Source: Roseiflexus sp. RS-1
GTDB lineage: Bacteria > Chloroflexota > Chloroflexia > Chloroflexales > Roseiflexaceae
Reading direction: 5' to 3'
DNA length: 64,000 nt
Assembly: GCF_000016665.1 (NCBI RefSeq)
Contig: NC_009523.1
Location: 3,595,501 to 3,659,500 of the forward strand
Every line of letters begins with the position of its first letter. Within the stretch, counting starts at the first letter, position 1. A program made the position numbers and the translations under genes. The notes under the pieces were generated by a model. That model made no database searches, was not told where the DNA came from, and saw nothing but the letters and a program-made list of their open reading frames with translations. Shown in pieces: positions 43,457-60,156 of this stretch.

Positions 43457-44130
43457 GGTGAGGTGGGTGAAGGCAGTGCCTTTGCCCACCACGGACGTCT
43501 GCTATTGCGAAGATTGAACGTTTGACTTCACTGAAAAACGCACCGCTGAGACGCCGGGAGCACGGAGAACCCTGAAAACGGACCTTGACCTTGATGGATG
43601 CACGGCATCTCGCGCCTCACGCGGCGACCGATGTGCATCAGACCGGCTCACGCGGAGGCGCGGAGGCGCGGAGATGAGGAGCGCAGCGAAGCGGGCGTCT
43701 CACGCGCCACGGCAGACCCGGACAGGGGTCAATGTATCTGAGAACTGCTATAATCCGGTATACGCTCTTGCCGTCGGGCTCATGGCGATTGAGCATTAAA
43801 TCCGCTCTACCGAACGAGCCGTGGGGCTGATGGAGATTGAGCATTAAATCCGCTATACTGCGCTAGCCGTGGGGCTGATGGAGATTGAGAAATAAATCCG
43901 CTATCCCGCGCTAGCCGTGGGGCTGAAGCCCTCGGCTAGCCAAGGCGAAGCCCGCCTGCGCGGGCTATGGCGGAATAATTACTCAAAGACCATAAGCCCT
44001 CGGCTAGCCAGGGCGAAGCCCGCCTGCGCGGGCTGTAGCGGATTATTTACTCAAAGACCATAAGCCCTCGGCTATGCAGGGCAAAGCCCGCCTGCGCGGG
44101 CTATGGCGGAATAATTACTCAAAGACCATT
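43457..44130. repeat. Repeat island after the lipid operon
   Basis: This 674-bp island contains, in order: a GACGCC-type dispersed repeat (43520-43575); an unoccupied IS110 target-like sequence with the AG core at 43656-43657; a promoter-like dispersed motif GAGAACTGCTATAATCC (about 43741); three short GTGGGGCTGATGGAGATTGA units; and three tandem copies of a roughly 69-bp element whose core is the hairpin AGCCCGC-CTGC-GCGGGCT (first at 43949-43966) ending in ATTACTCAAAGACCAT. No gene is seen. Confidence 0.85.
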
Positions 44131-48545: not shown

Positions 48546-48882
48546 TCTTCGTGTTATGAAGATTGAGCCCTTAATCCGGTCTGCGCCGCGTGCCGTCGGG
48601 CTGATGGAGATTGAGCATTTCATCCGGTCTGCGCCGCGCGCCGTCGGGCAGAGGAATAGCCGATAGCCGATAGCCGATCGGAAAGCTTGCCGTCGGGCAG
48701 AGGAATAGCCGATAGTCGATCGGAAAGCTTGCCGTCGGGCTCATGGAGATTGAAAATTATAGCAGTTCTCACAAAGATTGGTCTTGTCGGGCAGGGTTGC
48801 ACCCGCCATCGAAAGCGGACGCCGTGTGCGCCATCCCTCCGCGTGCTCCGCGTCTCTGTGTGCATCAGACCGGCTCACGCGG
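48546..48882. repeat. Repeat island left of IS110 copy 2
   Basis: Holds two units of GCCGTCGGGCTGATGGAGATTGA type, short CCGATAG heptad runs (48657-48680 and 48706-48721), an inverted copy of the GAGAACTGC promoter-like motif (about 48757-48770), and CCTCCGCGTGCTCCGCGTC at 48838-48856, which matches the uninterrupted target of IS110 copy 3. No gene is seen. Confidence 0.75.
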
Positions 48883-48899
48883 AGTAACTGTGTTGCTTG

Positions 48900-49862
48900 T
48901 CAAGGGGCGCTCGTATGCACAGCCGGATCCCAGGGCTTTTGCTGACGCAATATTGCGCCGAGAATAGTCAGCAGCTTGCGCATCGCAGCGACGATGGCGA
49001 CCTTGCGCGGCTTGCCAGCTTGACACAGGCGCTGATCGAAGGCGCGCCTGACCAGACGGCGCCGCGTGGCCGCCAGGGTCGCCATGTACAACACGCTGCG
49101 CACATCCCTCCTGCCGCCGGAGATATGCCGGGGTTTGTGCTGTGCGCCGCTCTGATTGGCATACGGCGCAACGCCCACAAAGGCCGCCGCTTCCGTGCGC
49201 TTGATGGTCCCCAGTTCGGGCAGGCGGAGCAGCAGGTTCCGTGCGGTGATCGCGCCGATGCCGGGCACGCTGTCGCGCAGCTCCCGTTTCCGGCGCACCT
49301 CGTCGGTGCGCTCCGCCTCGTTGTCGCGTTCCTGCTCAAGCGCACGGATCTCCTGATCCAGCCAATCAATATGCTGCTGGATGCCCGGGCGGAGGTTCGG
49401 CGCGGCAGCCGTCAACCGATTGATCTCAGCCGTCCGCATCTGAATCACCTGCTCCCGCCGGACCAGCAGGTCGCGCAAGGATGCGCGCTGCTCGTCCGTC
49501 GCTTGGTGGTGCGGCGGGCGCACCCGTTCGGCAAAGCGGGCGAGCAACCGGGCATCCAGGCGGTCGGTCTTCGCCTGGCGTCCTTCCGCGTGCGCCAGGG
49601 CGCGCACGCGGCGTGGCTGCACCCGCGCCGTCGGCAAGCCAGCCTGGAGCAGTTGGGCGAACACCATGCGCTCCAGCCCGCCGGTCGCCTCCAGCACAAT
49701 CAGGGTCGGCTGCAGGCGCTGGAGTCGCGTGACCAGGAGCTGGACACCTTCGTCGGTAGACGGTATCGTCTCGCGTGGCGCGTGCGGGTCGGCGCCAAAC
49801 GCCACATCCAGCGTCTGTTTGGAGACATCAATGCCGATAAAGAGCGACTCACGGGAAGCCAT
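48900..49862 (-). CDS. IS110 family transposase (copy 2)
   Basis: Intact 320-residue DEDD/Transposase_20 protein with Asp12, Glu58, Asp100, Asp103 and Ser248. Differences from copies 1 and 3 include GLPTARV, ARNLLLRLPELGTIKRTEAA and PRETIPSTDEG. The stop overlaps the right-end TTGACA box. Confidence 0.95.
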   Translation of the reverse strand: MASRESLFIGIDVSKQTLDVAFGADPHAPRETIPSTDEGVQLLVTRLQRLQPTLIVLEATGGLERMVFAQLLQAGLPTARVQPRRVRALAHAEGRQAKTDRLDARLLARFAERVRPPHHQATDEQRASLRDLLVRREQVIQMRTAEINRLTAAAPNLRPGIQQHIDWLDQEIRALEQERDNEAERTDEVRRKRELRDSVPGIGAITARNLLLRLPELGTIKRTEAAAFVGVAPYANQSGAQHKPRHISGGRRDVRSVLYMATLAATRRRLVRRAFDQRLCQAGKPRKVAIVAAMRKLLTILGAILRQQKPWDPAVHTSAP

Positions 49863-49881
49863 ACACAGAACCTCCTGAGGA

Positions 49882-50017
49882 AAACGGCGCCAGCCTTGCT
49901 AGCATATGCGGGTTTGAGGGCCCAGATAACTGTTCGGCTTGGTCGCGTTGAAGGACACGGCTACCCAACACTCCGCGGCGATCTCGTGAACCTGGCGCAG
50001 AACGGTATACCGTGTCC
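49882..50017 (-). ncRNA. Predicted bridge RNA of IS110 copy 2
   Basis: Identical to the copy 3 RNA at all guide positions. The actual insertion site of this copy (GCGC-CT-CCGCG) agrees with the left (CTGCGC) and right (CGCGGAG) target guides except at outer left positions. Confidence 0.72.
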
Positions 50018-50031
50018 CGTTAGATTATACT

Positions 50032-50837
50032 AGGCGCGGAGGCGCGGAGAGCGCGCGCAGGTCTTGCAAGGTCTGTCAGACGGGGCTGCACCCGTCGCTG
50101 GAAACGAGCGCTTCACGCGCCGCCTCGAGGCGGCGCCGTGGGGGGCACGGCATGCCGTGCCCCCACACCCGTCGCTGGAAGTGGGCGCCTCGCGCGACAC
50201 GGCAGACCCAACCAGGGGTCAATGTATCTGAGAACTGCTATAAATCCGCTCTACCGCGCTAGCCGTGGGGCTGAAGCCCTCGGCTAGCCAGGGCGAAGCC
50301 CGCCTGCGCGGGCTGGAGCGGATTATGTACTCAAAGACCATAAGCCCTCGGCTATGCAAGGCGAAGCCCGCCTGCGCGGGCGCGACGTTGCTCGTGCGGG
50401 CTGAAGCCCTCCCTGAGCACGGGGAAGCCCCTGCGGGGCTGGCGCGCGGGCGCTCGTGCGGGCTGAAGCCCTTGAGCATGTGGAAGCCCCTGCGTACCAT
50501 CGTCCGTTTCAGGCATCAGGACGCCCAAACTCCCCCTTCTCCCCGTGTGGGAGAAGGGGGCGGGGGGGATGAGGGGCAAAAGGCGCGGAATGCAGCACAC
50601 CGCGCATTGCTCCCAAGAACGCTCCCTTGAGAGGGGAATACTCCTCACCATCCGTGCGCATCCGTCATAGCGGCCCCTATCGGCTATCAGCCACCGACTA
50701 CCGACTACCGGCTATCGCCTATCGCCTATTAGCTATCGGCTATTTTAGTCTGGTTGCAGGCGAGGGGCGGACACGTTAACATGAAGCCTGTTCCAGCCAC
50801 TGCTGTGGTTGCGCTGCAACTTGAGATCGGCTATGCA
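50032..50837. repeat. Repeat island right of IS110 copy 2
   Basis: Contains a GAGAACTGCTATAAATCC motif (50229-50246), two AGCCCGC/GCGGGCT hairpin elements (50297 and 50367 regions), two GGGGAAGCCCCTGCGGGGCT-type units, one minus-orientation copy of the 111-bp C/G-rich family (50490-50590), and a degenerate CTATCGG heptad run (50685-50745). No gene is seen before the DUF6883 gene. Confidence 0.8.
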
Positions 50838-51447: not shown

Positions 51448-52924
51448 CCGATAGCCGATAGCTGATAGCCGATAGCCGATAGCCGATAGCCGATAGGGTC
51501 ATCGTTGACCATTGTTCCTATCCGCCGTGTCGCGCAAGGCGCCCGTGTCCAGCAAAGTGTAGACCGAAATTCATTTCGGTCATCGCGTGGGGTGCGCTAT
51601 TCCCAGGAGTATTCAACCTTGCCCATTAGGTTCGACCTTTGTGAGAACTGCTATAATCCGGTATTCACCTCTTGCCGTCGGGCTCATGGAGATTGAGCAT
51701 TAAATCCGGTATGCCGCGCTAGCCGTGGGGCTGATGGAGATTGAGAAATAAATCCGGTATGCGCCGCGTGCCGTCGGGCTAAAGCCCTCGGCTACACGAG
51801 ACGAAGCCCGCCTGCGCGGGCTAGAGCGGAATATTTCTTCAAAGACCATAAGCCCTCGGCTAGCCAAGGCGAAGCCCGCCTGCGCGGGCTATGGCGGAGG
51901 GAATACTCCTCATCATCCGTGCGCATCCGTCATATCCGTGCCAATCCGTGGTCTATTCCGACTCTCCGAGGCGAAGCCCGCCTGCACGGGCGCAACGTTG
52001 CGCGTGCGGGCTGAAGCCCTTGAGCACGGGGAAGCCCCTGCAGGGCTGGCGCGCGGGCGCTCGTGCGGGCTGAAGCCCTTCCTGAGCACGTGGAAGCCCC
52101 TGCGGGGCTACGGCGTTCTCACCGCTGAGAGCAATGGGCAAAAATGATTGAACTACGTGCGGCCTGGGTGCGCGGGCGTCCCCGCCCGCATGCGGAGACG
52201 GCGGGCTGATGGAGATTGCGAAATAAATCCGGTCTGCGTCGCGTGCCGTCGGGCTGAAGCCCTCGGCTATGCAAGGCAAAGCCCGCCTGCGCGGGCTATG
52301 GCGGAGGGAATACTCCTCACCATCCGTGCGCATCCGTCATAGCGGCGCCGATCCGTGTTCTATTCCGACTCTCCGAGGCGAAGCCCGCCTGCGCCAGGCT
52401 ATGGCGGATTATGTATTCAAAGACCATGACGCCGGGAGGTAGATGGTCAGTGTTCGCAAGATGCAATCTGGTTCGGGCGGTGTTTTCCGAACAGCATAAG
52501 GGCCGTGACCCATAGCAGATCACGGCCCTCGCGTATGCGCCGCTCCAGGCGTCGGCGGGTGTCCGCCTACCACAGGGAGCGGCGCGGGTACTGTTTGGCT
52601 CGCTCAGGGCAAACCGGGAACCGGCCTGTCGTTCTCCTTGAACACCCCGGCGCCGTGCCCCCCTGATTGACTCAGGGCGTCGCGGCGCATTTCCGGCGGG
52701 CGAGAAGCGCGATACCATAGCCAATAGCCGATAGCCGATAGCCGATAGCCGATAGCCGATAGGGTCATCGTTAGAGTTCGCGTTACGCGATGGTCGGCAC
52801 GCGCACGCCGTCGGCGTAAACGCCCTGGTTCGAGTCGCAAAGGCCGACTCCGCGGCCTCATGAGCTGCCGGGCGGACCGGAGCAGAGCCAATGACAACAG
52901 CAGGAATAGCCGACATCGCCGGAC
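51448..52924. repeat. Large repeat island with heptad arrays and hairpin elements
   Basis: No supported gene in 1.5 kb. Contents: a CCGATAG array (51439-51497) ending in GGGTCATCGTT; the hairpin GACCGAAATTCATTTCGGTC (51562-51581); a GAGAACTGCTATAATCCGG motif (51644-51662); at least four AGCCCGC/GCGGGCT elements (51780-52420); a single GCGGGCGTCCCCGCCCGC hairpin (52173-52190); and a second CCGATAG array (52724-52763), again ending in GGGTCATCGTT and followed by a 100-bp unit that recurs inverted at 59935-60050. Confidence 0.82.
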
Positions 52925-53299
52925 TTACGTCTCGTTCTTGAGTTTGCACACGCTAGCGACAAAGATTGCCGTCAGTTCGCTCGTTTCCGCCAGCAACGAC
53001 TCCAGCCGTAGCGCGGCAATCAGATCAGCCTTGACCAGTAAGCGCAGCCAGTAGGCCGTTTCTTCCAACTCCTTGATGCAGATCTGTTGCCTTGCGGCCT
53101 TATCAGCCAGGCTATGAGAACGGATCGCCTCAGCGTAGTTCGCGCCTACCGATGTACCTGAACGCAGCAGTTGTTTGCCGAGCACCTGAGCAACCTGGTG
53201 GCCTGACGCGGGATAATCCGGCAATGCGTTGTACACAGCAATAATGCGCAGCGCATAGTCCTCCAAACGCTCCATGAGTTGTTGTTCAAAAGGAGTCAT
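52925..53299 (-). CDS. Four-helix bundle protein (23S rRNA intervening-sequence protein family)
   Basis: The 124-residue product fits the four-helix-bundle family first seen in 23S rRNA intervening sequences: RLEDYALRIIAVYNALP, LGKQLLRSGTSVGANYAEAIRSHSLADKAARQQICIKELEETAYWLRLLVKADLI. The family is common in mobile or accessory regions and its function is not established. Here it is not in an rRNA gene but lies between two heptad-repeat arrays. Confidence 0.85.
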   Translation of the reverse strand: MTPFEQQLMERLEDYALRIIAVYNALPDYPASGHQVAQVLGKQLLRSGTSVGANYAEAIRSHSLADKAARQQICIKELEETAYWLRLLVKADLIAALRLESLLAETSELTAIFVASVCKLKNET

Positions 53300-53862
53300 T
53301 GACTTGCGTATCAGCTATTGGCCATCACCCATCCACCACCGCCATCCGCCATCCGCCACCAGACATCGGCCATCCGCCACCGGCTATCAGCTACCAGCTA
53401 TCGGTTATCGGCTATCAGCTATCAGCTATCGCCTATCGGCCATCCGCCACCAGACATCGGCCATCCGCCACCGGCTATCAGCTACCAGCTATCGGTTATC
53501 GGCTATCAGCTATCAGCTATCGCCTATCGGCCATCCGCCACCAGACATCGGCCATCCGCCACCGGCTATCAGCTACCAGCTATCGGTTATCGGCTATCAG
53601 CTATCAGCTATCGCCTATCGGCCATCCGCCACCAGACATCGGCCATCCGCCACCGGCTATCAGCTACCAGCTATCGGTTATCGGCTATCAGCTATCAGCT
53701 ATCGCCTATCGGCCATCCGCCACCAGACATCGGTCATCCGCCACCGGCTATCAGCTACCAGCTATCGGTTATCGGCTATCAGCTATCAGCTATCGCCTAT
53801 CGGCTATCGCCTATCGGCTATCAGCTATCGGCTATCGGCTATCGGCTATCAGCTATCGGCTA
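53300..53862 (+). repeat. Large CTATCGG heptad array with 91-bp higher-order repeat
   Basis: Nearly 560 bp of 7-bp units (CTATCGG, CTATCAG, CCATCCG and close variants). From 53348 to about 53800 they form five copies of a 91-bp unit (13 heptads), marked by AGACATCGG at 53361, 53452, 53543, 53634 and 53725. All three plus-strand frames stay open, giving spurious Ser-Ala-Ile-Gly-Tyr-Arg-Leu repeats. On the minus strand every frame meets TAG each 21 bp. The array abuts the stop codon of the NACHT-FGE gene. Confidence 0.93.
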
Positions 53863-56800
53863 TTAGCAAGAGGAGAACAAACGGGCGAGACGAAACCCGA
53901 TGATGACGAGGACGTGGCCAGGGTTGAGGACGTTGCGGCAGGCGCAACGGGCGCCGTCGCGAAGGCTGTTCCACGAGCCGCCGCGCAGCACGTATGTTCC
54001 ACCAGCACGTTTGTTTTTTGTGTAAAGACTTTCTGCGCTCACCTCGCCTTTGAACGGATACTTCAGAGGTGGCGTGCTGCACCACTCCCAGACATTCCCC
54101 GCCAGTTCCTCCGCCCCGCAGGCTGCCGCGCCGTGGGGGAAGATGCCCACCACCGAGGTTCCGCTGATCTTGCTCTCGTCGATGTTAGCCTGAATGCTGG
54201 CAATCATACTCCCGCTGGTCGCGGTTGTCAACTCCGCGCCCCAGGGGTACTCGCGCCGCCCGGTACGGGGGTCGCTGCCCGGCAGGGTCGGCGGGTAGGC
54301 CGCCGCCCGCTCCCACTCGGCCTCGGTGGGCAGGCGCACCTCCTCGCCCTCCTTCAGTACACCCAGGGCGCGCAGCCAGGCGTCGGCCCACCAGGCGAAG
54401 GCCGTGGCCGCATACCATGTGACGCCGACCACCGGGTGGTTGCCCTCGCCGGCCCGGTAGCGCGCGCCGGGCCAGAAGTACGGGCGGAACCCGTTATACG
54501 TTTCCGGGGTTTCTCCGTGCTGCTTCATCAGATCCTTCAGCCGATTCGCCGCCGCGACGGCTTCGGGCGCGCCGCGCCCGGCCAGGGCCTCGACGAAGAG
54601 CAGGTACTGGCGGTTAGTCACCGGGAAGCGCGCCAGGGCGTAGGGCCGGCGGATGGTGTAGTCGAACTGCGGCTCTTCGCGGTCGTATGTGCTGTTCGTA
54701 TCACCCATGCTGAACGTCCCCGGCTCGATGCGGTTCGCCCAGTAGTCGGGCTTCGTCAGGTCAAGCCCCGGACGCTCAGTATCGGCATCCAGCCGGTCGA
54801 GCATGGTGGCGGCGCGGTTGCGCAGCGCGGGGTCGGGGTGGGCGGCGCTGCGCCAGTCCTCCGTGAGGGCGGCGAGGGCGCGCAGGCGGGCGGTGGCTTC
54901 ATCGCGCAGGTCGGCGAGGTCCTCGACCACGCCGACATCGGCAAGAGCAGCGGCGGCGAGCAGCAGGTTTTCGGGATCGCGCCTGTCGAGCAATCCCCGC
55001 AGGAGCCGCTCCGTCTTACGGATCTGCTGACCATTGCTCCAGTAGCCGGCGGCGAGCAGCAGGGTCTCGCGCCAGCGCGCGTCTGCGCTGCGCTCCAGAA
55101 GAAACGCCACGCTGTCCGGCGCGCCGTCGCGGTTGTCGAGGCTGTCGAGCGCTCGCGCCGCCAGATACTCCTGAAACGTGTAGTGCGAAAAGGCATAGCG
55201 CTCCTCGCGCTGCTGGATGATCCCGCTGTCGACGGCAAGGCGGCGCAGCAGATCATGCACCCGCCTGTCGGCTTCTTCGCGGTCAATCTTCAATCGTTCG
55301 ACATACAGCGGGCTGAGCCATTCCTGCGCCTGGCGGAGGGTCACCTCGCGCACCTGCTGCGGCTGTTGTTGCATCGCGAGGGCGAGCGCTTCCAGCCGGC
55401 GTTGCTCGGACGCAAGCTGCGCAACGCTCGTCACCAGCGTGTCGCTGGCAACATTCTGCCTGCGCCAGAGGTCGAGGAGGAGTTCGATCAACTTCTCGTA
55501 CAGTTTCGCGCGCTGGTCGGGGAGCCGGACGCTGTTGAACTGGAGCAGCGCCATCACCGTCAGCAACAGCGGATTCGTCGCCATGTCGCGCAGGCGATCA
55601 TTGCGCTCAATGACTTCCCAGAGCTGCGCGGCCTGATCGGCAGCGGCGTCCTGTCGCCGCCGCCCGATCGCGTGCAGGCGCGCATACACGGCATCGAACC
55701 ACTTGCGCAGCAGCGCCTGCGCTTCCTGCTCATCGAGCGGGCTGAGGTGCCGCTCCAGGAAGTCGGGCAGGTAGACCAGCCCGCCGTAGCCTGCCGTGCG
55801 ACTTGCGACGACGTAGCGCTGCTTATCATACCGGCGCGCGAGATTGTCAATCACCTGCGCCAGGTACGCGCGGCGCTGTTCATCGCCCGCCTCGTCCAGT
55901 CCGTCGAGCAGGAGCAGCACGTTGCCGTCGTTCTTCCCGATCAGCGACGAGAGCGCGCCCTCCTGAATCTCGCAATGCCTTGCCGCCTCGCGATCCAGCC
56001 ACGTAAGGAACAGGTCGGCCGGCGCGCCAGCGTAGCGCTCCCGCTCCTGCGGCGGCAGTTCGCGCAGATCGGCCGGGATCGACGCGGCAAAAAGCGTCAG
56101 GCGCACATAGATGGGCAACGGCGCCCGCTGCAGATGGAGATGCAAACCGGCGGCATCGCTCGCCAGCAACGCAGCATCGCCCCGGCGATACGCCTCAGCC
56201 AGGCGAAGCGCGGCATAGCGCAGGGTCGTTGTTTTCCCGCTTCCCGCATCGCCAAGCAGCAACAGGCGCGTGGTAGTCACCGGCGACGGAGATTCATCAT
56301 CGCCTGATACCCCTCTGGTCGGAGGCGTCTGGCGCGCTGCCAGCAACTCCGGCTCACTCAGCAGTTCAAACACATACCTGCTGCGACGCTCCCCGGCGGG
56401 CAACTCCCGCTCCGGCCCTTGCCGCTCTTCGCCGCGCATGCGCCGGCGGTGGGCCTCAATCGCGCCGCGTTCGACAACCCGCAGCGGCACGTGAACCGAT
56501 TCGAGACTGAGTTGCACCTGCTCGGTGGCGATACCGAGCGGCTGCGTAAAACCGTACTCCGCCTGGAGCCAGTCGAGATAGTGCGTAATGCCGACCTGCA
56601 ACTGCTCCTGGAATTGTCGAGCTTGCCGTTCGGCTTCGAGCCTCTTCTTCTCTTCCTCACGCTGCACCTCATCTTCAACATCGCTCCGTACCCCGCCGAT
56701 GAGACGATCAACCCGGCGCAAGAGACGCTCGCGCCAGGGTTTCACAACGGAAACAGCGACAACCAGCGCCATGATGACCACAAGCAGCGCCGGCTGCCAG

Positions 56801-57105
56801 GCGAACAGGGTGACGAGGGTCTCAACCGGCTTCTCGCCGCTGAGAATCCGGTCAATGGCCTCCGGCACGGTGAGCGTCGGCTCAGGGGTCGGCAGCGCCA
56901 CGGTCGGCACGGGCGGCGCCACGGTCGGCGCGGGCGGCGCTGCGGTCGGCGTGGGTGGCGCCACAGTTGGCACGGGGGTTGCAGGGAGTGCTGTAGCCGT
57001 CGGCGCGGGCTGCTGCGCCGCCACCGGGTTGAGCGCGCCGAACACCAGCGCGACAGGCAGCGCGAGGGTGAGTGCAATACTGGAAGGATGTCGTCTGATG
57101 TGCAT
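53863..57105 (-). CDS. Membrane-anchored NACHT NTPase fused to FGE-sulfatase domain
   Basis: A 1080-residue protein: signal-like N-terminus (1-30), Pro/Thr/Val low-complexity repeat (about 33-78), membrane span (about 100-122), coiled-coil (about 130-170), NACHT/STAND NTPase with Walker A GDAGSGKTT (285-293) and Walker B LLLLDGLDE (397-405), a helical repeat region (about 560-810), and a C-terminal formylglycine-generating-enzyme-like C-type lectin fold (about 815-1080: FSMGDTNS, FPVTNRQYLLF, HPVVGVTWYAATAFAWW, RLPTEAEWERAAA, ELAGNVWEWC, VLRGGSWN, GFRLAR). The last 36 residues from Trp1045 look like a hypervariable region of a diversity-generating retroelement. Likely a conflict or signalling receptor; the FGE domain is probably a ligand-binding module, not an enzyme. 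Confidence 0.88.
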   Translation of the reverse strand: MHIRRHPSSIALTLALPVALVFGALNPVAAQQPAPTATALPATPVPTVAPPTPTAAPPAPTVAPPVPTVALPTPEPTLTVPEAIDRILSGEKPVETLVTLFAWQPALLVVIMALVVAVSVVKPWRERLLRRVDRLIGGVRSDVEDEVQREEEKKRLEAERQARQFQEQLQVGITHYLDWLQAEYGFTQPLGIATEQVQLSLESVHVPLRVVERGAIEAHRRRMRGEERQGPERELPAGERRSRYVFELLSEPELLAARQTPPTRGVSGDDESPSPVTTTRLLLLGDAGSGKTTTLRYAALRLAEAYRRGDAALLASDAAGLHLHLQRAPLPIYVRLTLFAASIPADLRELPPQERERYAGAPADLFLTWLDREAARHCEIQEGALSSLIGKNDGNVLLLLDGLDEAGDEQRRAYLAQVIDNLARRYDKQRYVVASRTAGYGGLVYLPDFLERHLSPLDEQEAQALLRKWFDAVYARLHAIGRRRQDAAADQAAQLWEVIERNDRLRDMATNPLLLTVMALLQFNSVRLPDQRAKLYEKLIELLLDLWRRQNVASDTLVTSVAQLASEQRRLEALALAMQQQPQQVREVTLRQAQEWLSPLYVERLKIDREEADRRVHDLLRRLAVDSGIIQQREERYAFSHYTFQEYLAARALDSLDNRDGAPDSVAFLLERSADARWRETLLLAAGYWSNGQQIRKTERLLRGLLDRRDPENLLLAAAALADVGVVEDLADLRDEATARLRALAALTEDWRSAAHPDPALRNRAATMLDRLDADTERPGLDLTKPDYWANRIEPGTFSMGDTNSTYDREEPQFDYTIRRPYALARFPVTNRQYLLFVEALAGRGAPEAVAAANRLKDLMKQHGETPETYNGFRPYFWPGARYRAGEGNHPVVGVTWYAATAFAWWADAWLRALGVLKEGEEVRLPTEAEWERAAAYPPTLPGSDPRTGRREYPWGAELTTATSGSMIASIQANIDESKISGTSVVGIFPHGAAACGAEELAGNVWEWCSTPPLKYPFKGEVSAESLYTKNKRAGGTYVLRGGSWNSLRDGARCACRNVLNPGHVLVIIGFRLARLFSSC
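53872..53973 (-). other. Candidate DGR variable region
   Basis: This is the 3' end of the NACHT-FGE gene, from the Trp of GGSWN to GFRLAR. Most codons where families usually show Asn are NNC here (AGC, GGC, TGC, GTC, CTC, GGC, CAC, GTC, CTC, GTC, ATC), the footprint left when AAC codons of a template repeat are randomised at adenines. No template repeat or reverse transcriptase is in the window. Confidence 0.5.
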
Positions 57106-57593
57106 CAGCGTCTCTCGGACAGAATGACGGGTTCACATCGCATACGGGCGCTGCGCCCATGATAATGATAATCGAGAGCGCATAGCGAGGCAATTTCCAG
57201 CACCGGAGGATAGGGGGTTCTGCTCTTTCCTGCCCTGAGCGCCCGGTTCCAGACAAAGCGCCCGGCGCTCCCGGCGGTGATTCTGTTGCGCCGCAGAGCC
57301 GCAGCGGACGCGGAGTCCTCATTTTGGCCGTTCTCACATATGGTCTTTGAATAAATAATCCGGTATAGCCCGCGCAGGCGGGCTTCGCCCTGGCTAGCCG
57401 AGGGCTTATGGTCTTTGAATAAATAATCCGGTATAGCCCGCGCAGGCGGGCTTTGCCCTGGTTAGCCGAGGGCTTCAGCCCCACGGCTAGCGCGGTATAG
57501 CGGAATAAATTCTCAATCTCCATCAGCCCCACGGCTAGCGCAGTATAGCGGATTTAATTTTCAATCTCCATATGTGCGACATTCCTCCGCGTG
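57106..57593. repeat. Repeat island upstream of IS110 copy 3
   Basis: Two inverted-orientation AGCCCGC/GCGGGCT elements with GGTCTTTGAATAAATAATCC spacers (57340-57500), then two TCTCAATCTCCATCAGCCC-type units, and the IS110 target CCTCCGCGTG-CT. No gene is seen. The NACHT-FGE promoter should lie within 57106-57330, but no clear -10/-35 pair was found. Confidence 0.75.
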
Positions 57594-57597
57594 CTAG

Positions 57598-57603
57598 TAT
57601 AAT
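57598..57603 (+). promoter_or_regulatory. Left-end TATAAT box of IS110 copy 3
   Basis: A perfect -10 hexamer 2 bp inside the element end. In the inserted form it has no matching -35. In a circular intermediate the right-end TTGACA (58724-58729) would sit exactly 17 bp upstream. Copies 1 and 2 are identical. Confidence 0.7.
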
Positions 57604-57609
57604 CTAACG

Positions 57610-57745
57610 GGACACGGTATACCGTTCTGCGCCAGGTTCACGAGATCGCCGCGGAGTGTTGGGTAGCCGTGTCCTTCAACGCGACCAAGCCGAACAGTTA
57701 TCTGGGCCCTCAAACCCGCATATGCTAGCAAGGCTGGCGCCGTTT
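57610..57745 (+). ncRNA. Predicted bridge RNA of IS110 copy 3
   Basis: Stem-loop 1 (target-binding) is closed by GGACACGG (57610-57617) and CCGTGTCC (57667-57674). It holds CTGCGC (57627-57632), same-sense as the left target half, and CGCGGAG (57650-57656), complementary to the right target half CTCCGCG. Stem-loop 2 (donor-binding) is closed by 57681-57691 with 57732-57740 (nine pairs, two bulged A). It holds ACAGTTA (57694-57700), identical to the right end of the element, and ATGCTAG (57722-57728), complementary to the left end CTAGTAT with one G-T wobble. This is the IS621-type bridge-RNA plan. The 3' end is uncertain. Confidence 0.75.
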
Positions 57746-57764
57746 TCCTCAGGAGGTTCTGTGT

Positions 57765-58727
57765 ATGGCTTCCCGTGAGTCGCTCTTTATCGGCATTGAT
57801 GTCTCCAAACAGACGCTGGATGTGGCGTTTGGCGCCGACCCGCACGCGCCACGCGAGACGATACCGTATACCAACGAAGGTGTCCAGCTCCTGGTCACGC
57901 GACTCCAGCGCCTGCAGCCGACCCTGATTGTGCTGGAGGCGACCGGCGGGCTGGAGCGCATGGTGTTCGCCCAACTGCTCCAGGCTGGCGTGCCGACGGC
58001 GCGGGTGCAGCCACGCCGCGTGCGCGCCCTGGCGCACGCGGAAGGACGCCAGGCGAAGACCGACCGCCTGGATGCCCGGTTGCTCGCCCGCTTTGCCGAA
58101 CGGGTGCGCCCGCCGCACCACCAAGCGACGGACGAGCAGCGCGCATCCTTGCGCGACCTGCTGGTCCGGCGGGAGCAGGTGATTCAGATGCGGACGGCTG
58201 AGATCAATCGGTTGACGGCTGCCGCGCCGAACCTCCGCCCGGGCATCCAGCAGCATATTGATTGGCTGGATCAGGAGATCCGTGCGCTTGAGCAGGAACG
58301 CGACAACGAGGCGGAGCGCACCGACGAGGTGCGCCGGAAACGGGAGCTGCGCGACAGCGTGCCCGGCATCGGCGCGATCACCGCACTGAACCTGCTGCTC
58401 CGCCTGCCCGAACTGGGGACCATCAATCGCAAGGAAGCGGCGGCCTTTGTGGGCGTTGCGCCGTATGCCAATCAGAGCGGCGCACAGCACAAACCCCGGC
58501 ATATCTCCGGCGGCAGGAGGGATGTGCGCAGCGTGTTGTACATGGCGACCCTGGCGGCCACGCGGCGCCGTCTGGTCAGGCGCGCCTTCGATCAGCGCCT
58601 GTGTCAAGCTGGCAAGCCGCGCAAGGTCGCCATCGTCGCTGCGATGCGCAAGCTGCTGACTATTCTCGGCGCAATATTGCGTCAGCAAAAGCCCTGGGAT
58701 CCGGCTGTGCATACGAGCGCCCCTTGA
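57765..58727 (+). CDS. IS110 family transposase (copy 3)
   Basis: Intact 320-residue protein with Asp12, Glu58, Asp100, Asp103 and Ser248. It differs from copy 1 at a few sites (RETIPYTNEG, ELRDS). The ribosome binding site AGGAGG lies 9 bp before the ATG. The TGA stop is part of the right-end TTGACA. Confidence 0.95.
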   Translation: MASRESLFIGIDVSKQTLDVAFGADPHAPRETIPYTNEGVQLLVTRLQRLQPTLIVLEATGGLERMVFAQLLQAGVPTARVQPRRVRALAHAEGRQAKTDRLDARLLARFAERVRPPHHQATDEQRASLRDLLVRREQVIQMRTAEINRLTAAAPNLRPGIQQHIDWLDQEIRALEQERDNEAERTDEVRRKRELRDSVPGIGAITALNLLLRLPELGTINRKEAAAFVGVAPYANQSGAQHKPRHISGGRRDVRSVLYMATLAATRRRLVRRAFDQRLCQAGKPRKVAIVAAMRKLLTILGAILRQQKPWDPAVHTSAP

Positions 58728-58744
58728 CAAGCAACACAGTTACT

Positions 58745-59133
58745 CCGCGTCTCCGCATGCATCGGACCGGCTCACGCGGAGGCGCGGAGGCGCGGAGATG
58801 GGGAGCGCAGCGTTCGCAGAGGAAGATTTCATATCGCGTCACGCACACGCAGGCTTTGCCATGTTTCCATCAAGGTTCTCTGTGCCCTCGGCGTCTCAGC
58901 GGTGCGTTTTTGCAGTGAAGTCAATAATCCAGCATAGCCCGCGCAGGCGGGCTTTGCCTTGCATAGCCGAGGGCTTATGGTCTTTGAGTAATTATTCCGC
59001 CATAGCCCGCGCAGGCGGGCTTCGCCTTGGCTAGCCGAGGGCTTCAGTCCCACGGCTAGCGCGGGATAGCGGATTTATTTCTCAATCTCCATTAGCCCCA
59101 CGGCACGCGGCGCATACCGGATGAAATGCTCAA
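58745..59133. repeat. Repeat island right of IS110 copy 3
   Basis: Includes an unoccupied IS110 target-like site (AG core at 58780-58781), a GGCGTTCGCAGAGGAA-type unit (58803-58842) also found inside the membrane-protein gene at 46.8 kb, a GACGCC/TTTTTGCAG repeat (58870-58920), and two inverted AGCCCGC/GCGGGCT elements (58935-59045). No gene is seen. Confidence 0.78.
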
Positions 59134-59900
59134 TGTGCGGGCGGGGACGCCCGCGCTCCCAGGTTGCACGTGGTGCGCTCATTCCGCTTTCGCCGCATGC
59201 GGGCGGGGACGCCTGCGCTCCCAGGACGTGCGTGGTGCGCTCATTCCGCCTTCGCCGCATGCGGGCGGGGACGCCTGCGCTCCCAGGACGTGCGTGGTGC
59301 GCTCATTGCGTGCGGGCGGGGACGCCCGCGCACCCAGGACGTGCGTGGTGCGCTCATTCTGCCTTCGCTGCGTGCGGGCGGGGACGCCCGCGCTCCCAGG
59401 TTGCACGTGGTTCGGTCATTCCGCCTTCGCCGCATGCGGGCGGGGACGCCCGCGCTCCCAGGTCGCACGTGGTTCGGTCATTCCGCCTTCGCTGCACACG
59501 GGCGGGGACGCCCGCGCACCCAGGACGTGCGTGGTGCGCTCATTCCGCCTTCGCCGCATGCGGGCGAGGACGCCCGCACTCCCAGGACGCACGTGGTTCA
59601 GTCATTCCGCATTCGCCGCACGCGGGCGAGGACGCCCGTGCACCCAGGTCGCACGTGGTTCGGTCATTCCGCTTTCTCCGCATGCGGGCGCGGATGCCCG
59701 CGCTCCCAGGTCGCACGGGGTTCGGTCATTCCGCCGTCTCCGCGTGCGGGCGCGGATGCCCGCGCTCCCAGGTCGCACGGGGTTCGGTCATTCCGCCGTC
59801 TCCGCGTGCGGGCGCGGACGCCCGCGCTCCCAGGTCGCACGGGGTTCGGTCATTCCGCCGTCTCCGCGTGCGGGCGCGGACGCCCGCGCTCCCAGCATCG
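59134..59900 (+). repeat. Tandem array of a 62-bp hairpin-bearing unit
   Basis: About twelve units, most 62 bp long, start at 59136, 59198, 59260 and onward. Each contains TGCGGGCGGGGACGCCCGCG (a GCGGGCG/CGCCCGC hairpin), CTCCCAGG, CACGTGGTGCGCTCATTCCG and a variable TTCGCCGCA end. Units diverge gradually along the array (GGGGACG to CGGATG), and the last four are almost identical. As 62 is not a multiple of 3, all plus frames read open. There are no spacers, so it is not a CRISPR array. Confidence 0.9.
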
Positions 59901-60156
59901 GGTTCAACCTTTGCGAGAACTGTTATAGGACTGCCCGACAGCTCATGAGACCACTGAGGCAGCCTTTGCGACCCGATCCGGGTCGTTTACGCCGATAGAC
60001 GTGCTCATGCTGACCACCGCGTAACGCGAACCCCAATGATGACCCTATCGGCTATCGGCTATTAGCTATCAGCTATCGGCTATCAGCTATCGGCTATCAG
60101 CTATCGGCTATCAGCTATCGGCTATCAGCTATCGGCTATCAGCTATCGGCTATCGG
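59901..60156. repeat. Inverted flank unit and CTATCGG heptad array
   Basis: A GAGAACTGTTATAGG motif (59914-59928) is followed by a 100-bp unit that is an inverted relative of 52765-52875, then CCCTATCGG and about 17 heptads (60046-60170). The array runs into the 3' end of the helicase gene. Confidence 0.85.

What the first reader, a model, noticed from the sequence alone, without database searches (positions are those of the whole stretch)
53863..57105. Membrane-anchored NACHT-FGE protein with a DGR-like variable tail
The C-terminal 36 residues after GGSWN are in the exact place of variable regions of diversity-generating retroelements in C-type-lectin/FGE proteins. Many codons in the tail are NNC, as expected from adenine mutagenesis of AAC codons. 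STAND NTPases with diversified FGE/lectin domains are known in conflict systems of multicellular bacteria. Here the receptor also has a signal sequence and membrane span, which is unusual.
Basis: partly seen in the sequence, partly recalled or inferred. Interest (0 to 1): 0.72.

Follow-up and report, generated by a model that had tools for sequence, protein, structure and literature searches.

The report
Fossil hypervariable receptor, mutator machinery lost
A filamentous photosynthetic bacterium carries an immune-receptor-like protein whose tail was once randomised by a self-mutating retroelement (a DGR), but the mutating machinery has since been replaced by repeats, leaving one frozen variant plus a scrap of the machinery's RNA.

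Summary
In detail: 53863-57105(-) encodes a 1080-aa protein (signal sequence, Pro-rich stretch, membrane span, NACHT, FGE/C-type-lectin domain) whose last 34 codons are strongly NNC. The tail is a genuine DGR variable repeat: an orthologue in a related genome (G026) sits in an intact DGR (target, RT, Avd, template repeat), and the window tail lines up without gaps with that template. Tails from two species of the genus differ at 20/25 template-adenine sites but only 7/77 others. But this genome holds no DGR RT and no template; its only RT is the one beside cas1. Between the variable repeat and a 190-nt structured RNA segment (which directly follows the template in G026, and survives here once, 85% identical), the RT-avd-TR block is replaced by heptamer arrays and an unrelated four-helix-bundle gene. 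A sister genome shows an intermediate, the first 29 RT codons cut off by the same heptamers. So this is a stranded DGR target: formerly diversified, now frozen, ORF intact. NACHT-FGE DGR targets, and repeat arrays replacing DGR parts, are published; complete loss with a retained DGR-RNA relic is the new part.

The parts
53863..57105 (-). Former DGR target gene: signal sequence, Pro-rich stretch, TM, NACHT, FGE/CLec domain (1080 aa)
   Evidence: orthologue 56% identical in an intact DGR locus
53884..53985 (-). Variable repeat (VR), 102 nt, RGGSW...GFRLA
   Evidence: ungapped match to the G026 template; A-site mismatches 14/25 vs 11/77 elsewhere (codon positions 1+2: 14/25 vs 3/43, p 1e-5); 20/25 vs 7/77 against the G003 VR, p 4e-11
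53881..54729 (-). FGE-sulfatase / C-type-lectin-fold domain (residues 793-1075)
   Evidence: FGE and EgtB-type structures match by sequence
55666..56268 (-). NACHT NTPase domain (about residues 280-480), Walker A 285, Walker B 397
   Evidence: fold match to NLRC4/NOD2/NLRP3
56737..56799 (-). Predicted membrane span (about residues 103-123)
   Evidence: hydropathy, conserved in L120, L121, L088
57013..57105 (-). Signal-sequence-like N-terminus (residues 1-31)
   Evidence: hydropathy, conserved in L120, L121, L088
53300..53862 (.). GATAGCC-type heptamer array occupying the place of RT-avd-TR; begins about 12 nt behind the VR
   Evidence: the same repeat type cuts the RT stub in sister genome G005
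52925..53299 (-). Four-helix-bundle (23S IVP-type, TIGR02436/PF05635) gene, 124 aa; not the DGR Avd
   Evidence: 80% identical gene at the same place in G005; no match to G026 Avd
52717..52764 (.). Second heptamer patch
52526..52716 (-). Relic of the structured RNA segment that directly follows the template in G026 (Sp-like part of the DGR RNA)
   Evidence: 85% over 179 nt, single copy in the genome; covarying structure; CM match 201.8 bits (the window sequence is itself one of the four the model was built from)

Best explanation
The gene encodes a membrane-anchored STAND (NACHT) NTPase whose C-terminal FGE/C-type-lectin domain was diversified by a cis-encoded DGR in an ancestor. The RT, Avd and template were later lost and replaced by heptamer arrays plus a four-helix-bundle gene, leaving one frozen VR variant and a relic of the DGR RNA (Sp-like segment) behind. 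Shown: VR ancestry, absence of RT and template genome-wide, both flanks of the lost block, a truncated RT in a sister genome. Inferred: that the protein works, or worked, as a sensor (lectin domain binds a ligand, NACHT oligomerises, an effector response follows), that the NACHT and FGE domains face the cytoplasm, and that the frozen variant is still used.
For: Intact DGR around the orthologue in G026: RT with IGNLTSQ and YADD (phrog_1423 E 2e-130), Avd (PF22296; DivGenRetAVD over cutoff), template with 18 A-site and 0 other mismatches to its VR in 80 nt. Window VR ungapped to that template and A-biased; within-genus VR comparison 20/25 vs 7/77, p 4e-11. VR framework third positions differ 3/34 against 39/100 in the 300 nt upstream, as expected of a stretch recopied from a template. 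Control: an ordinary FGE tail differs at 0-2 of 36 residues in the genus, the VR at 16 of 34. No RT or template in the genome. RT stub cut by heptamers in G005. Sp-like relic: single copy, 85% identical, covarying structure, CM hit right behind the template of an untrained locus, L092.
Against: No population data, so present-day invariance of the VR is inferred from missing machinery. The template used for comparison is from another family of the order, so some non-A differences are plain divergence. Sister loci are from MAGs. The L092 covariance-model hit is weak (E 0.01), and the four strong hits are the training sequences.
Confidence: 0.93

Rival explanations
1. Active DGR target, diversified now by an RT and template elsewhere in the genome (in trans).
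For: VR shape and A-bias; diversification best explained by trans activity is reported in Thiohalocapsa (PMC10907252).
Against: Complete single-contig genome with no DGR RT and no template. The only RT lies beside cas1.
Confidence: 0.03
2. Ordinary FGE domain with a GC-rich tail; DGR resemblance is chance.
For: NNC codons are common in a GC-rich gene (38% of the rest).
Against: Direct alignment to a real template; A-site-restricted divergence p 4e-11; RT stub at the sister locus and Sp-like relic here; ordinary FGE tails in the genus are conserved.
Confidence: 0.01
3. The whole locus, receptor included, is a decaying pseudogene with no remaining function.
For: Frameshifts or a stop in the sister copies G003 and G005; IS110-type copies and arrays around the locus.
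Against: The ORF here is intact over 1080 codons, and L120 and L121 are open as far as held; dN/dS about 0.25, though this averages over time before the loss.
Confidence: 0.25
4. The four-helix-bundle gene is the DGR's own Avd retained after RT loss.
For: Avd and 23S-IVP proteins are four-helix bundles; the gene lies in the block where avd was.
Against: The window gene matches PF05635/TIGR02436, not bAvd, gives no match to the G026 Avd, and a dissimilar TIGR02436 gene sits there in G003.
Confidence: 0.04

Closest known systems
DGR-diversified STAND/NACHT-CLec putative antigen sensors of multicellular bacteria (Dore et al. 2024, PMC10907252)
   Same: NACHT plus C-terminal FGE/CLec domain with VR; filamentous Chloroflexi named among hosts; membrane topologies reported; MITE-like repeat arrays replacing RT or TR reported
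   Different: here RT, Avd and template are all gone genome-wide, and a structured RNA relic of the DGR remains
DGR-linked FGS domains of VMAP ternary conflict systems (Kaur et al. 2020, PMC7159879)
   Same: FGE/FGS domain with hypervariable C-terminus as putative invader-binding part
   Different: STAND NTPase fusion, not the vWA-MoxR-VMAP system
BPP-1 DGR (PMC3240598, PMC12875486)
   Same: A-specific VR/TR logic; structured spacer (Sp) 3' of TR that recruits RT-Avd; G026 has RT, Avd, TR
   Different: gene order target-RT-avd-TR-Sp in G026; in the window only target and Sp-like relic remain
23S rRNA IVP / TIGR02436 four-helix-bundle proteins
   Same: family of the 124-aa neighbour
   Different: stands between heptamer arrays at a DGR scar, not in an rRNA gene

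Membership tests
Diversity-generating retroelement (active) | DGR reverse transcriptase in the genome | tested here: not met
   only an RT next to cas1
Diversity-generating retroelement (active) | Template repeat with A at variable positions | tested here: not met
Diversity-generating retroelement (active) | Avd accessory gene | tested here: not met
   neighbour is 23S-IVP type, not bAvd; no tblastn match of G026 Avd in the window; not searched genome-wide
DGR target protein (by descent) | VR aligning to a template with differences concentrated at template A | tested here: met
   against G026 template, p 8e-5 (all sites); against sister VR, p 4e-11
DGR target protein (by descent) | Orthologue inside an intact DGR | tested here: met
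   G026 C98
DGR target protein (by descent) | C-type-lectin fold carrying the VR at its C-terminus | tested here: met
   FGE-sulfatase domain by Pfam and PDB sequence matches; the AlphaFold model is unreliable in this part
STAND/NACHT sensor | NACHT with Walker A/B and NLR-like fold | tested here: met
STAND/NACHT sensor | Ligand-triggered oligomerisation and effector response | not testable with these tools
   no effector domain recognised
DGR RNA spacer (Sp) | Structured segment directly 3' of the template | tested here: met
   9 pairs with compensatory change, 0 of 500 shuffles as high; position in G026 and G029
DGR RNA spacer (Sp) | Needed for RT-Avd binding and cDNA priming | not testable with these tools
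   by analogy with BPP-1 (PMC12875486)

The most novel reading that the evidence does not exclude
Heptamer arrays together with TIGR02436 four-helix-bundle genes form a mobile or recombinogenic element that repeatedly removes DGR machinery behind the VR. All three Roseiflexus loci whose 3' side is held (the window, G005, G003) carry such a gene within about 0.6 kb of the VR, two of them (window and G003) without detectable similarity to each other, while the window genome has only two such genes in 5.8 Mb; all three TIGR02436 genes checked for it lie by period-7 arrays.
Probability: 0.2. Interest if true: 0.7.

Novelty: new variant of a known kind. Interest (0 to 1): 0.55.

Why it matters
It gives a documented series from an intact DGR (G026) through a truncated one (G005) to a fully stranded target (window). 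This lets one ask whether a hypervariable bacterial sensor can be frozen and kept as a fixed receptor, much as germline-fixed immune receptors are. It also supplies a comparative, covarying model of the DGR RNA segment behind the template in Chloroflexales, which can be used to find DGR relics that RT- or TR-based searches miss.

Tried and rejected
Own-genome RT as a DGR RT: rejected, it lies next to cas1 and matches the group II/Cas RT type. Neighbouring 124-aa gene as Avd: rejected. Divergent template by BLAST and relaxed patterns: none. Rfam scan: only dispersed repeats scored as CRISPR-DR28. Full-length AlphaFold model: good for NACHT, poor for the FGE C-terminus, so VR surface exposure was not judged from it. 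First pair count failed for a string of the wrong length and the second was one column out of register; the corrected one is. Literature: no paper in the held library joins Roseiflexus with DGRs; a search for decayed DGRs found nothing relevant.

Full report
Observation. The window lies in a complete 5,801,598-base single-contig genome; the size matches Roseiflexus sp. RS-1 from memory, and a named orthologue comes from Roseiflexus sp. SKYB12. The ORF 53863-57105(-) is real with NACHT and FGE-sulfatase domains, a signal-like N-terminus, a Pro-rich stretch and a membrane span. The tail codons are NNC in 21 of 24 positions between GGSW and GFR, p 7e-7 against the rest of the gene.

No machinery in this genome. 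The only RVT_1 matches belong to one RT frame beside a cas1-like gene. A template search allowing each VR base or A with up to three mismatches found only the VR itself. The DGR RT of a relative found in this genome only that same RT plus trivial scores, and the relative's template found only the VR. So no DGR is present now.

The tail is nevertheless a DGR variable repeat. The orthologue in G026 (same order, 56% identical over the aligned part) is followed by an RT with the IGNLTSQ motif (phrog_1423), an Avd (PF22296; phrog_3206; NCBIfam DivGenRetAVD over its cutoff) and a template repeat. That template differs from its VR at 18 adenines and no other base in 80 nt. A second VR in the same genome differs at 16 of 25 A sites and 1 of 77 others. 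The window VR aligns ungapped to this template: 14/25 A sites differ against 11/77 others, or 14/25 against 3/43 at codon positions 1 and 2. The strongest test uses two members of one genus: the window and G003 VRs differ at 20/25 template-A sites and 7/77 others, p 4e-11, while third positions of the VR framework differ less (3/34) than in the 300 nt upstream (39/100). An ordinary FGE tail in the genus differs at 0-2 of 36 residues; the VR differs at 16 of 34.

How the machinery was lost. In G026 the order is target, RT, Avd, template, then a conserved segment of about 190 nt. That segment is found once in this genome, at 52526-52716(-), 85% identical over 179 nt; once in G005; and behind a second template in G029. 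Four sequences support one secondary structure with nine pairs showing compensatory change (0 of 500 shuffles as high; slid controls at most 3). A covariance model built from them also scores weakly (E 0.01) directly behind the template of a more distant DGR locus not used in training, L092:9671-9845. By position it corresponds to the Sp segment of the BPP-1 DGR RNA, which folds and recruits RT-Avd (PMC12875486); that functional equation is inference. In the window, the space between VR and this segment holds a heptamer array (53300-53862), a four-helix-bundle gene (52925-53299) and a second heptamer patch. In sister genome G005 the VR is followed by the first 29 codons of a DGR RT (MKTYRNLYPQVYACENLYESYRAARRARY), cut off by the same heptamers, followed by an 80% identical four-helix-bundle gene and then the RNA relic. 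G003 carries a different period-7 array at the matching point behind the VR and a dissimilar TIGR02436 gene; the RNA relic was not found there.

State of the gene. It is an intact ORF here; two further orthologues (L120, L121) are open as far as the contigs reach, and dN/dS against them is about 0.25. G003 has two frameshifts and a stop, G005 one frameshift, with the caveat that both are MAGs. The dN/dS value averages over time before the loss, so present function is not proven.

Mechanism. The NACHT part resembles NLRC4/NOD2/NLRP3 in fold. With a cleaved signal and one membrane span, NACHT and FGE would face the cytoplasm (inference). The likely working model is that of published DGR-diversified NACHT-CLec proteins: the lectin domain senses a ligand, the STAND NTPase oligomerises and triggers a response; the effector here is unknown. 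What is special is that ligand choice is now frozen.

Comparison. NACHT/STAND-FGE DGR targets, and repeat arrays that replaced an RT or a TR, are described in Thiohalocapsa (PMC10907252). There other DGR loci remain in the genome and diversification was still seen at most incomplete loci. Here the whole genome has lost the machinery. I therefore call it a new variant of a known kind.

Noticed in passing
window 52925-53299; L089:10205-10573; L125: All three TIGR02436 genes checked for it in Roseiflexus lie next to period-7 repeat arrays, suggesting a heptamer/IVP element.
   Followed up: partly
window 48877-50033 and 57594-58750: Two 99% identical inverted copies of an IS110-type (by recollection of the family) transposase region flank the locus.
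   Followed up: no
window 59126-59950: About a dozen 62-nt tandem repeat units read through as long Pro/Arg-rich ORFs.
   Followed up: no
window 43944-44103, 51800-51891, 57366-57457, 58935-59026: Rfam CRISPR-DR28 hits are parts of dispersed ~68-nt repeats, not a CRISPR array.
   Followed up: no
L088:10807: The G026 VR gene itself has a 2-nt length change near the VR end that shifts its frame out of GFRLAR (real or assembly error).
   Followed up: no
L092:9671-9845, L093, L095: Motif GRGCCRAANA is shared behind the templates of distant Chloroflexales DGRs, possibly a core of the DGR RNA.
   Followed up: partly
L124:9396-12308: Oscillochloris sp. ZM17-4 has an orthologue with a VR-like tail and no DGR RT within the 20 kb held.
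   Followed up: no
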